The notes below the pieces were generated by a model, which was not told where the DNA came from, made no database searches, and was given only the letters and a program-made list of their open reading frames with translations. The position numbers were made by a program, and so were the translations under genes. Source: Morchella semilibera (lineage: Eukaryota; Ascomycota; Pezizomycetes; Pezizales; Morchellaceae). From it: a stretch of 64,000 bases of DNA. The stretch is taken from contig WBVU01000009.1 in the NCBI GenBank assembly GCA_009192285.1, forward strand, positions 1,178,001 to 1,242,000, in the 5' to 3' direction. Shown in pieces: positions 6,067 through 56,137 of the stretch. Position 1 is the first letter of the stretch; every line of letters starts with the position of its first letter.

Positions 6067-6203
6067 CATCAGCAAACTCAACTTATGACTGCAGTCTCTC
6101 AACAGTCTCCCGGGTCTCCTGAGAGTCTCCTGAGACTTCTGGAGATTTTTTGAGTCTCCTGAGGCTCAGGAGACATCAGGAGACAAATGAAGTCTTGCTG
6201 ATG
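6067..6203 (+). mobile_element. CATCAGCAA MITE copy 1
   Basis: 137 bp; starts CATCAGCAAACTCAAC, ends AGTCTTGCTGATG; flanked by AG on both sides. The interior is built of GGAGACTC/GAGTCTCC words that can fold back. Confidence 0.85.
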
Positions 6204-6342
6204 AGTTCGGGGATAGGGTCTCGGGTTTTAGGGGATAAGGTCGGGTTCGAATATAGGAGTCTTGGGAGGTTCGATGGGGTTCTGTACAGGGATCCTCGGG
6301 TTAGTCATCGGGTCGGGTGGTGTGATATATATATGGGCCTTG

Positions 6343-6976
6343 TGTGACGGAGTAACCTGACGCAAAGAAGAAGATGACAATGATGACGCAAAGGGACTCG
6401 AGGAGCACAGTGTACTCGACGAGGGGGCCGATGAAGACAGGGACAACGCCAGACAGGCACAAGCACAGGCACCGGCGAAGACAAAGACGAGGACAAGGGC
6501 ACAAGAGCACAGAGCAGAGAAAGTGAGGACCGAAGGGACCTCTACGAGAACGATGAGGGATACTATGAGTTTCCTCTTGTCAGAGGATCGAGTCTTTGGT
6601 ACGAGAGACTATGGCTTTAGAAATAGGAGTAGATTCCTATGTACCGAGATAACAGGAAGACGAGACAGAGAAGAAAGAAAGAAAAAACTAAGGAAAACAT
6701 CTATCCCCGCTATTTAACATACCTCCTCCACCAGTCCGCCAAGACTACATATCATCATCCACAGAATCTCATAGAACCCCGTCGCTACCACACCTCGTAA
6801 TCCTCCCCACCATCTCCGCTATTTACATTACCAATCCATCACGCCATCGAACCTCCTAGAAACCTATGACGACACCCTCCACCTCGCATTCTCCGCTCTC
6901 GCTTAACATTTCCCCAACAACCACAACCGTACACTGCCCACCAAACTGTCGGGACAGATGCCAAGACGCCGGGACA
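6343..6976 (-). mobile_element. Solo LTR, Gypsy family B
   Basis: Runs from TGTGACGGAG to CGCCGGGACA, reading as an LTR on the minus strand (TGTCCCGG...CCGTCACA). The 5-bp target duplication CCTTG lies at 6338-6342 and 6977-6981. Inserted inside the family-A LTR. Confidence 0.9.
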
Positions 6977-8350
6977 CCTTGCCCTCGCTTGTAGATAGCT
7001 TCTTTTCTTTCCTCTTCACGCAACCTTCCTATCCTTTAGCCAATACAAGCTTTAGGATCTCTAGTTTCTCTGAAGTGTCCTCGCTCCTAACCTTTCGAAG
7101 GTAGGAGGAAATCCTATAGTCCTCGTCTCGTGACTCCCGCCTCACTCTGTCCCTCGTCCCCGAACCCCACTCTTTACTCTGCCTAAGTCTCGTACCTATT
7201 AGCCTCGCCTCGTCCCGCCTTAGTTGTGTACCTTAGCACTCCCTGTCCTCGCCCTCGCTTCGCTCCGTGATATTAAGGTTGCGTCTCCAACGCCAACCTA
7301 CACAACAAACCCCACCTAAGTACTTTACTAACAAGTTACTAGTACCATGTCGCACGCAGACCCTATGGAAGAATCAGAAGGACTCTACGAGATCCTTCAA
7401 AGGGATCTTGATACGTTCGTAGCCGCCCACCCTACCGTCGCCGAAGATACCAGCGAAGAAGCCAAGAAGATTCATGATCTCATGTTTCGTGCTCAACAAG
7501 CCGTTAAACAACTCATCATAGAATGGCAAGGCGAACCAGAAGACGGAGATGAGGCTCGAAAAGAATGGACAAAGAAGCTTACGGAGTTGGGAAGGGAGAA
7601 TCAGGATCTGGACAGACAGATAACCATCCTGGAAACTCAGGTAAACACCCTCCAAGTCCAAGTACGTACAGCAAACCAAGCAATGCAATCTGCCGAGGCC
7701 GCGCTTGCAGCCCAGATCGCACTTCCGCCTCCTCCCCCACCTCCAGCAGCAGACCCCATTCCGCCACCTCCCCCTCGTCGTCGCAACCGCCTCCTAGAAG
7801 GCATTACTCTGACACAGGAACCAAGAGTTGAAAGATCAGAGAAGCTTCCAGACCCGGAGAAATACCGAGGCAACAGGAAGGGACTCCTCCAATTCCAAAA
7901 TATGTTGAAACTTAAGCTTTTGGGCAATGCCAATCGGTACCCCACCCTCCAGAATCAATTGACGTATGCCATTTCTCGCTTGGAAGGCCCTGCCGCCGAC
8001 CAGTTTATGCCATTCATTACTACTGCTGGGATCAACCTCCCCTCCATGGAGAGGTTCTTTGAAATCTTAAACACAGCCTTTGGAGATCCAGATCAGGTTG
8101 GCACTGCTCGTCGCGCCCTCAGGAGAATTAGACAACTCAATCGTCCCTTCTCGGAATACTTCGCTGAGTTCCAACGTTATGCTGCTAAGGCCGGGATGGG
8201 AGAAACAGCCAATGTGGAGGCTCTTATGGAAGGATTGAGCGAGGAACTCACCAAACTCATGGTACATGAGGAGACTCCCGCCACAGTATATGAACTTGCC
8301 ACTATTCTCCAACGCTTGGACAACAAGCAGCAGATACTCACTGCTCGCTA

Positions 8351-53700: not shown

Positions 53701-54481
53701 AATACTCCGCCAGATAGTCTCGAAGTGTTTGTAATTCCAATCGGGTCATCCCATACATAGGTCCAAATGGTACCGTTTTTCCATCTTGGATATCAATAGC
53801 TAGATCGTATTCCAATCGATGATGAGGTAACTTGGAAGCTTCAGGTTCATTAAGAAGATGAAGGTATTGATGATGTTCCCTGGGTACTAGGGCGTAAGGG
53901 TCCTTTGGTGTTTTTGCCAAGAGGTCGTCCAGAGCTTTAAGAGTAGTGGAATATAGTCGCATTCCTTTCCTCTTCTTGTTAATCAAACGGTGAAAGGCAT
54001 AGGATTCAATAACCGAAATATTAGTAATAGGTTTAGCCAGGGGTTCAATAGAAATCCCCTTAGCAATGACCTTTGTCTGATTAACCAAGCAATGTGTAGT
54101 ACAGGTGGGAGAATCAAAATGTATCTCATTAATAGCAGGAAGAATCGTAGTTGCATGTCTGCACATCCATGGGAGTCCCATAACGATGGGGTAATGTCCG
54201 AGTTGTGTTATAAAAAAGGGGGCCTCCTCTCGATGGCCATTAATATCAAGGTTGAGAATAACTTTATGTGTGACCTTTCCTGATTCGATAGGTCTGCCGT
54301 CTATTACATCTATATGGCGAGGAACTTGGAGGGGGATGGTAGTGAGGTTGTGGTGGCATAGGAAGTCTTGGTCTATGAAAGCGTATCCTGAGGCGCCAGT
54401 ATCGATAAGGGCATATGATGGGATAGAGAAATCTTTATTTTGAGAAATTGAACACGTTACAACTAATTGATTCCCATCCAT
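50781..54481 (-). pseudogene. Pol of Gypsy family A, broken, with chromodomain
   Basis: Order: retropepsin ALIDTGASGYAFID (about 54400), reverse transcriptase FVKKADGSLRLCVDYRKLN and YLDDILIYSATLEEH (about 53180), RNase H ETDASDY (about 52725), integrase (H...CHICRRSK; DFFTGLP; SDRGTQF; HPQTDGQTERVN) and chromodomain (EWEVDAILDSRKRRGRLEYL) ending at 50781. Damage: a MITE at 53558-53694, TAG at 52969-52971 (TGG expected), a one-base deletion near 52575 and a frameshift near 52297. The last 502 codons, covering integrase and chromodomain, are open. Confidence 0.93.
53558..53694 (-). mobile_element. CATCAGCAA MITE copy 12 (in pol)
   Basis: 137 bp; TA on both sides; splits the reverse transcriptase start. 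Confidence 0.9.
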
Positions 54482-54555
54482 ATCCTTTTCTGAAACCGAA
54501 AACCCAGAAAGCGAAAGCTTAAACCAATCCTTAAACCGCCCCTGGAGTGAGCCAC

Positions 54556-56137
54556 TCAGTCCAGGGTAAAATCTTTTAACGCCTCATCGCCGGAGGCCTT
54601 CTCTTCTTCTTCTTCTTTAATTTCCATCCGAGCTCCCCTCATCCTGGGGGCTGGGTTCCTAGGAGCCGGCGCCTGCGGGCATTCCTTAACCAAATGTCCT
54701 TCCTGACCACAATAAAAACATCTATTTTCCACGCGACGGGCTTCTCTCTCCTGAGGGTCCGGGCGGCCACGACCAAACGACAAATCCATGGGGGCCACTC
54801 CTCCTGGCGTATGAGATAGGTGAGCAGCAGGAGGGTTGGGGCGAGCGGGGGCTTGGTAGCGAGGTGCAGGTGGGGGCGGAGCTGAGTACCGAGGTGCAGG
54901 GGCAGCTGGGGCTTGATAACAAGGTGCGGGGGAAACGGGAGCAGCGTAGCGAGGTGCGGGGCGAGTTTGAGGTACGGGGGCCTGGTACATCAGCAAACTC
55001 AACTTGTGACTAGAGTCTCCCAACAGTCTCCCGGGTCTCCTGAGAGTCTCCTGAGACCGCCAGATATTTTTTGAATCTCCTGAGCCTCAGGAGACATCAG
55101 GAGACAAATGAAGTCTTGCTGATGTAGCGAGGGCGGTAGCGAGCAGTAATTATCTGCTGCTTGTTGTCTAGGCGTTGGAGGATAGTGGCGAGTTCGATGA
55201 CCGTAGCGGGAGTCTCCTCATGGACCATGAGTTTGGTAAGTTCCTCGCTCAGGCCTTCCATAAGAGCTTCCACATTGGCAGTTTCTCCCATACCAGCCTC
55301 TGCAGCGTAGCGTTGGAATTCGGCGAAGTATTCCGAAAAGGGACGGTTGAGTTGCCTAATTCTTCTAAGGGCGCGGCGGGCAGTACCTACCTGGTCTGGG
55401 TCCCCGAATGCTGTATTTAAAATTTCAAAGAACCTTTCCATGGAGGAAAGATTGATCCCGATAGTAGTGATATATGGCATGAATTGGTCGGCGGCAGGGC
55501 CTTCCAAGCGAGAGATGGCATAGGTTAGTTGATTCTGAAGGGTGGGGTACCGGTCGGCATTGCCCAAGAGCTTGAGTTTCAACATATTTTGGAACTGTGG
55601 GAGTCCCTTCCTGTTTCCACGGTATTTCTCCGCGTCGGGAAGTTTCTCTGACTTTTCCATACGAGGTTCGGGGGCGGGGGCGAAGCCTTGCAAGAAACGA
55701 TTGGGTCGCCTTGGAGGTGGTGGTGGTGGTACAATAGGTTCAACCGGGGGAGGGGGCAAAGCAATTTGGACTGCCAGGGCGGCTTCTGCCTCTTGAGTTG
55801 CGTGGTTTGCTTGGGTAACTGTGGCTTGCAGGCAAGTGACTTCCTTTTTCAGGTCAGCTACCTGTTTCTCCAGGTCTTGATTCTCCCTTCCTTGTTCCGA
55901 CACTCTCGTTTGCCATTCCTTAGTTGCTTCTTTGGCTTCTTCGGTAACGTCATCGAGTTCAGACAGGAGAGTGTGGACGGCGTGGGTTGCATCATGCATT
56001 AACTTATGCATTTTTTTGGCTTCGTCGGTGGCCCCTGAGGGGACATTGGGGTAACTGGTAATGAAACTATCCATGTCTGTTACTAGTTGTTGATAGTTAA
56101 TCCCTTCCGGGTCCGTCATCTGAGCTTCTTGCGACAT
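54556..56137 (-). pseudogene. Gag of Gypsy family A, split by a MITE
   Basis: Starts MSQEAQMTDPEGINYQQLVT at 56137. It has a coiled coil (residues about 60-120), a proline hinge and a capsid domain (SEKLPDAEKYRGNRKGLPQF to LQRLDNKQQI). Its reading is interrupted at 55124 by a MITE and resumes at 54987 with proline/tyrosine repeats (APRY), a zinc knuckle CFYCGQEGHLVKEC and an acidic tail ending 54556. It is closely homologous to the gag at 7347-9069. Without the MITE the frame appears open throughout. Confidence 0.93.
54988..55124 (+). mobile_element. CATCAGCAA MITE copy 13 (in gag)
   Basis: 137 bp; TA on both sides. Inserted at almost the same gag position as copy 2 in the other family-A element, in the same direction relative to the window but opposite relative to gag. 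Confidence 0.9.

What the first reader, a model, noticed from the sequence alone, without database searches (positions are those of the whole stretch)
6067..55124. MITE swarm with Plavaka ends and a 2-bp target duplication of any sequence
At least 13 copies of about 137 bp share CATCAGCAA...TTGCTGATG termini. Flanking duplications read TA (7 copies), TT, TC, GT, GG, AG and CA. Empty sites are visible in sister LTRs (36675, 47075, 48965) and in the paralogous gag. The same terminus begins the Plavaka element at 38504 and ends that at 18853. Seen: termini, duplications, empty sites. Inferred: a Plavaka transposase mobilises them and makes 2-bp duplications without sequence preference. A TA-only Tc1-type origin is ruled out by the non-TA copies.
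Basis: partly seen in the sequence, partly recalled or inferred. Interest (0 to 1): 0.75.

Follow-up and report, generated by a model that had tools for sequence, protein, structure and literature searches.

The report
Plavaka-type miniature transposons in a fungus
Hundreds of tiny jumping DNA pieces in this fungal genome carry the end sequences of a known transposon family, Plavaka, and copy two bases of the target when they land, most often but not only TA; this fits a published family and is mainly a well-documented new example of it.

Summary
In a genome sample, 105 of 116 distinct full copies have an exact 2-bp duplication, covering 15 of 16 dinucleotides. Full Plavaka elements of three families do the same: 8 of 9 fetched copies with both ends. 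So the miniature elements fit mobilisation by a Plavaka transposase; their subterminal sequence resembles family A, little or not B and C.

Two corrections. The target is not 'any sequence': TA is roughly four- to five-fold enriched, and the flanks show a weak two-fold-symmetric preference. The 38504 element does not pair with the 18853 end; its other half is 17510-9848, split off by an LTR insertion and a rearrangement.

The core claim is in print in general form: PlavakaB elements have CATCA..TGATG ends and 2- or 3-bp duplications (PMC12730594, passages). Added here: a quantified target spectrum, two miniature families, a probable morel-relative host. Verdict: new member of a known kind.

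The parts
6067..6203 (+). MITE copy, 137 bp, duplication AG
8351..8486 (+). MITE copy, 136 bp, duplication TA; reciprocal empty site with 54988
8540..8676 (+). MITE copy, duplication TA; empty site at 54799-54987
31707..31843 (-). MITE copy, duplication CA
32325..32461 (-). MITE copy, duplication TT; empty sites in repeat paralogues
34306..34448 (-). MITE copy with 6-bp insertion (143 bp), duplication TT; many empty sites in LTRs
34980..35117 (+). MITE copy, 138 bp, duplication GT; empty site at 36623-36833
44838..44974 (+). MITE copy in a repeat that interrupts a Plavaka family B fragment, duplication TA; empty site at 48931-49029
48644..48780 (-). MITE copy, duplication TC; empty site at 46704-46971
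49029..49165 (+). MITE copy, duplication GG; empty site at 46922-47218
49627..49763 (+). MITE copy, duplication TA; empty site in L157
53558..53694 (-). MITE copy, duplication TA
54988..55124 (+). MITE copy, duplication TA; reciprocal empty site with 8351
33819..33908 (+). left-truncated copy of a second, 109-bp MITE family with the same terminus
38504..43351 (+). first half of a Plavaka family A element (family positions 1-4291, transposase on - strand), with a solo LTR inserted at 39307-39929
9848..17510 (-). second half, inferred to be of the same Plavaka element (family positions about 4287-11356), carrying accessory frames and the other CATCAGCAA end, itself interrupted by an LTR at about 16610-17242; outer flanks GGGT/GGGT with the 38504 end
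18433..18853 (-). end fragment of another, older Plavaka family A copy (88% over the first 324 bp)
43976..46340 (.). Plavaka family B fragment in two pieces (43976-44427, 45175-46340), part of the transposase gene on the - strand

Best explanation
[quoted passage not shown] A Plavaka transposase, most likely of the local family A type, recognises the 9-bp CATCAGCAA terminus plus a GTCTCC-type subterminal repeat. It inserts the element at a staggered 2-bp cut, and repair of the stagger gives the 2-bp duplication. Target choice is loose but biased: TA, then TG/CA, at the cut, G just outside the duplication on both sides, and few T at the fourth base outside. Shown: ends, duplications, empty sites, full elements with the same ends and duplication length, target bias. 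Inferred: which transposase moves the MITEs, the role of the subterminal repeats, the chemistry.
For: MITE duplications: 13 of 13 in the window, 105 of 116 in the genome sample that includes them. Full Plavaka elements: 8 of 9 fetched copies with both ends have exact 2-bp duplications (family A 6 of 7; family B 1 of 1, 10.68 kb; family C 1 of 1, 11.26 kb, CATCAGGAA ends). One family A copy sits inside a MITE with a TC duplication; joining the flanks with one TC aligns to the MITE consensus without a gap. Without the 9-bp end, the MITE left end against family A left end (score 39, shuffles 15.8 +/- 3.0) and right against right (28, shuffles 14.0 +/- 2.2) exceed 500 of 500 shuffles; the crossed pairs are reached by 24 and 9 of 500, and pairs with B and C by 11 to 218 of 500. 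Family A has two long open transposase pieces collinear with family B's 1000-aa protein, and the first 70 bp of its left end is found at 40 scored places, 23 of them identical.
Against: Beyond the 9-bp end the MITE is not a simple internal deletion of family A; similarity there is partial and rests largely on shared GTCTCC repeats. Of 128 MITE hits in the fetched sequence, 120 are full miniature copies and the other 8 (interrupted or at a locus edge) were not looked into except L045, so no longer element with the exact MITE ends was found. 11 of 116 copies lack an exact 2-bp duplication (one has 3 bp, one 4 bp). One fetched family A copy (L025) lacks a duplication, and the window's own split copy has GGGT/GGGT, that is 4 bp and no 2-bp match. 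Excision or allele polymorphism was not shown: the two contig-pair comparisons tried (L164/L171, L168/L172) did not align outside the element.
Confidence: 0.9

Rival explanations
1. The MITEs are TA-specific Tc1/mariner- or PIF-type elements, and the non-TA duplications are mutated or misaligned.
For: TA is the commonest duplication, 30 of 105.
Against: 75 of 105 duplications are not TA yet match exactly on both sides; empty sites with a single TT, TT, GT, TC or GG exist for five window copies; full Plavaka elements share the termini.
Confidence: 0.01
2. Another transposase of the same clade, EnSpm/CACTA, moves the MITEs.
For: The genome holds EnSpm-type transposases (25 matches to PF02992), and this clade makes short duplications (2 to 5 bp, PMC12730594 passages).
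Against: The one EnSpm family examined (two copies, 99.8% identical over 7.4 kb) begins ..ACTCACTATGG, not CATCAGCAA; only its left end was seen. Plavaka families A and B share the MITE's 9-bp terminus exactly.
Confidence: 0.05
3. A Plavaka family other than A, B or C, not yet sampled or extinct, is the true parent and mobiliser; family A is only a cousin.
For: The MITE's bases just after the 9-bp end differ from all three families' ends; a second, related 109-bp MITE shares part of its left subterminal sequence. Ends of several other Plavaka matches were not fetched.
Against: Family A is the only sampled family whose ends beat every shuffle on both sides, and it has many near-identical copies.
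Confidence: 0.35

Closest known systems
PlavakaB DNA transposons (Kojima 2025, PMC12730594; passages seen)
   Different: The passages seen describe reconstructed families in Agaricomycotina; 'mite', 'nonautonomous' and 'subterminal' have 0 occurrences in the main text. Here the host looks like a morel relative (Ascomycota), a target bias is measured, and one split copy has a 4-bp match.
CACTA/EnSpm elements
   Same: Same wider clade, short duplications; subterminal repeat arrays and a second element-encoded protein (these CACTA traits are recalled, not from a call).
   Different: CACTA-type terminus and 3-bp duplication instead of CATCAGCAA and 2 bp.
Tc1/mariner MITEs (recalled)
   Same: Short, inverted ends, frequent TA duplication.
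   Different: Duplication is not fixed to TA here.
Plavaka non-autonomous elements of Marasmius oreades (PMC8290104; passages seen)
   Same: Non-autonomous families classified by sharing end and duplication traits with autonomous families.
   Different: Their end motifs are in a supplement that could not be read, so no sequence comparison was made.

Membership tests
PlavakaB | Termini CATCA..TGATG | tested here: met
   MITEs (one window copy begins TATCA, one ends TGATA), families A, B and C full elements
PlavakaB | 2- or 3-bp target duplication | tested here: met
   105 of 116 MITEs with 2 bp, one with 3 bp; 8 of 9 fetched full elements with 2 bp. Against: the window's split copy has 4 bp.
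PlavakaB | Encodes Plavaka transposase PF18759 between those ends | tested here: met
   Full elements only: genome matches, window frames, families B and C. The MITEs are too short to encode it.
PlavakaB | D..D..C(2)C..H(3-4)H..E motif order | tested here: met
   Alignment of families B and C with eight relatives: C429, C432, H681, H685, E705 invariant; D307 and D398 in at least 90%; their assignment to the motif is mine. Family A pieces show the same residues in the aligned text.
PlavakaB | Transposase falls in the PlavakaB clade of the published tree | not testable with these tools
   Reference sequences are in a supplement; no supplement look-ups were allowed
MITE | Short, repetitive, without transposase, inverted ends and duplications | tested here: met
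   137 bp; 842 left-end and 899 right-end sites at up to 2 mismatches, reversed controls 0
Tc1/mariner | TA-only duplication | tested here: not met
   75 of 105 not TA
CACTA/EnSpm | CACTA terminus and 3-bp duplication | tested here: not met
   Terminus CATCAGCAA, 2 bp

The most novel reading that the evidence does not exclude
PlavakaB works as a two-component system like CACTA: each family carries its own subterminal repeat array (TCTCC-N-GA type in A, GGCGC in B) read by a fast-diverging accessory protein encoded in the element, and the MITEs spread to several hundred copies because they keep the array of family A (7 GTCTCC motifs in 137 bp) and not merely the 9-bp end. The transposase prefers a two-fold-symmetric target centred on TA.
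Probability: 0.3. Interest if true: 0.45.

Novelty: new member of a known kind. Interest (0 to 1): 0.3.

Why it matters
Plavaka elements are fungal transposons of which few have been described with ends and duplications in the papers found here. A high-copy miniature family gives a quantitative insertion-site profile for the group and links hundreds of small repeats to their likely enzyme. That helps annotation: the many TA-flanked copies could be taken for Tc1/mariner MITEs.

Tried and rejected
TA-only origin: rejected by counts. Direct internal-deletion origin from family A: not supported, the ends differ soon after the 9-bp terminus. Pairing 18853 with 9848: rejected, since the flanks do not match (GA against GG) and the 18853 end is 88% identical to family A over 324 bp while 9848-17510 is about 97-99%. 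Allele polymorphism between contigs C21 and C22: L164 gave no alignment to L171, and L168/L172 aligned only over 121 bases around the MITE, so nothing was learned. Fold of the accessory protein: mean pLDDT 36, useless. Pfam on one accessory protein of family A and one of family B: one sub-threshold match (E 0.043) and none. A paper search for the raw terminus string gave 1,384 papers; the 15 listed look unrelated. Family A copies L033 and L035 were fetched in part but both ends were not reached; L013's right end was not reached either.

Rows dropped before the duplication count: of 128 profile hits in the window plus the loci then fetched, 8 were partial or at an edge, and 4 of the 120 remaining had near-identical flanks to another copy. 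The 116 are 98 from the loci fetched around the 100 listed perfect left ends (of 842), 13 from the window and 5 others, so the sample leans to copies with a consensus left end. Motif densities carry no significance test; the flank biases are the strongest of 32 position-by-base tests (pooled p 5e-6 and 6e-6).
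Full report
Observation. The window holds 13 full copies of one small element (136-143 bp), each bounded by CATCAGCAA..TTGCTGATG with at most one substitution in the ends, and each flanked by an exact 2-bp duplication. Copies 8351 and 54988 are each other's empty site in a paralogous pair, read by eye from the flanks. For 6067, 31707 and 53558 no empty site was found.

Genome. The window is C23:1178001-1242000 of a 56.76-Mb assembly. The 25-bp left end is found 842 times at up to 2 mismatches and a 24-bp right end 899 times, with none for the reversed controls. 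The 100 listed perfect left ends were fetched with flanks. With the window and five incidental copies this gave 116 distinct full copies, 105 of them with an exact 2-bp duplication; comparing dinucleotides 1-7 bases further out gives 6-11 of 116. Of the 11 without, one has a 3-bp (AGC) and one a 4-bp (CCCT) match.

Target preference. The 105 duplications are TA 30, TG 14, TT 9, AA 7, CA 7, AG 6, GA 6, CT 5, TC 5, CC 5, GG 3, AT 3, GC 2, GT 2, AC 1, CG 0. Against flank composition TA is expected 6.3 times (p=5e-13), and pyrimidine-purine steps are 51 of 105 against 22%. TA stands before 118 of 535 exact left ends genome-wide, a lower share (22%) than in the sample (29%) but still well above background. 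The two sides independently show the same bias just outside the duplication: G at the first base in 39 and 38 of 105, and T at the fourth base in only 16 and 14 of 105. So the target is degenerate but not random, and the preference is two-fold symmetric about the duplication.

Plavaka elements. The Plavaka transposase profile PF18759 has 128 matches in the genome and matches window frames at 40727-42359 and 43676-44539. Three families were read from end to end. Family A (11.36 kb in copy L025) has CATCAGCAAGATTCAAA and CATCAGCAAGCCTATTC ends; family B (10.68 kb) has CATCAGCAAGCTTGCAG at one end and TTGCTGATG at the other; family C (11.26 kb) has CATCAGGAAAAAAT at both ends. Both ends were reached in 7 fetched family A copies, one B and one C. 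Exact 2-bp duplications were found in 6 of 7 (GA, TA, TT, TA, GT, TA), 1 of 1 (TC) and 1 of 1 (CG); L025 has none. Counting the window's split copy, which has a 4-bp match instead, it is 8 of 10. One family A copy lies inside a MITE, and the joined flanks align to the MITE consensus without a gap. The first 70 bp of the family A left end is present at 40 scored places, 23 of them identical. Its transposase lies in two open pieces of 261 and 700 codons, collinear with family B's 1000-aa protein; a small intron between them is inferred.

Link between MITE and Plavaka. Without the 9-bp end, 66 bp of the MITE's left end against the family A left end, and right against right, score above all 500 shuffles; the crossed pairs are reached by 24 and 9 of 500 shuffles, and pairs with families B and C by 11 to 218 of 500. 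The MITE holds 7 GTCTCC motifs in 137 bp. Family A has 5 TCTCC-N-GA type motifs in each terminal 500 bp against 11 in 4 kb of its interior; family B instead has GGCGC clusters (19 in the first 500 bp, 8 in the last; 13 in 6 kb of its interior). A second MITE family of 109 bp with the same terminus has at least 40 places, and its 7 complete fetched copies all have 2-bp duplications (TG, CA, AG, TA, CC, TA, TA). A truncated copy lies at 33819-33908 in the window.

The window's Plavaka copy. The pieces 38504-43351 and 17510-9848 cover family A positions 1-4291 and about 4287-11356. Each stops at an LTR end, and the bases GCCTT stand on both sides, as expected for one LTR insertion with a 5-bp duplication. 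I infer that they are halves of one element. Their opposite orientation needs a later rearrangement, most simply an inversion between LTRs. Their outer flanks agree over four bases, GGGT, so this copy may have a 4-bp duplication. The fragment at 18433-18853, 88% identical over 324 bp, is another, older copy.

Host. The closest relatives of the family B transposase are Morchella proteins (66% to M. importuna). Of the 7 relatives of a family A accessory protein, 3 are named, all Morchella; the closest, at 92%, has no name. A morel relative (Pezizomycetes) is the likely host; this is inferred from transposon proteins alone.

What is known. The passages seen of Kojima 2025 (PMC12730594) state that PlavakaB families have CATCA..TGATG termini and 2- or 3-bp duplications, and that Plavaka transposases carry C(2)C and H(3-4)H motifs. 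The matching residues are conserved in families B and C and eight relatives. The central claim of the finding is therefore in print in general form. Searches for Plavaka with target site duplication (3 papers), with TSD (2), with MITE (2, passages seen), with transposase (8), Morchella with Plavaka (1) and Morchella with MITE and transposable element (6, listing only) showed no description of these MITEs in what was seen. Supplements and subscription papers were not searched.

Accessory proteins. Families A and B encode, besides the transposase, related proteins (A2a and A2b against B2: about 27-32% identity, E 1e-26 to 1e-32; a weak match of A2a to C2). Of the accessory frames I scanned one A2 protein and the B3 protein against Pfam: nothing above cut-off. 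Relatives of A2b were found only in Morchella or unnamed sources (7 proteins). A role in reading the subterminal repeats is speculation by analogy with CACTA (recalled).

Noticed in passing
window 38504-43351 and 9848-17510: Two pieces that look like one Plavaka copy split by an LTR insertion (GCCTT duplication) and a rearrangement; outer flanks GGGT/GGGT.
   Followed up: yes
L043 around position 3645 (C1:2163245): A family A right end abuts a MITE that lacks exactly its 9-bp CATCAGCAA end, with no duplication; origin unexplained.
   Followed up: partly
full elements of families A, B, C (L039-L044, L058-L063): Related accessory proteins without a recognised Pfam domain; family A has two related frames, 61% identical.
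   Followed up: partly
window 10167-10747: About 101-bp tandem repeat near one end of Plavaka family A, units containing CTGCTGATG, a near-match to the terminus.
   Followed up: no
L049 positions 875-1011 and 1377-1512: Two MITEs with the same flanks about 500 bp apart inside that tandem repeat, as if one insertion was duplicated with the repeat.
   Followed up: no
window 21593-23032 (-): DDE_Tnp_1_7 (PF13843) transposase in two frames.
   Followed up: no
window 24134-27799 (-): Uninterrupted 1221-codon frame of an LTR retrotransposon pol with RT, RNase H and integrase.
   Followed up: no
contigs C9/C10, C12/C13, C21/C22 of G000: Matches at nearly the same coordinates suggest retained haplotype copies, useful for insertion polymorphism.
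   Followed up: partly
L173, L174: Recent EnSpm-type family (two copies 99.8% identical over 7.4 kb) with an ACTCACTATGG start.
   Followed up: partly
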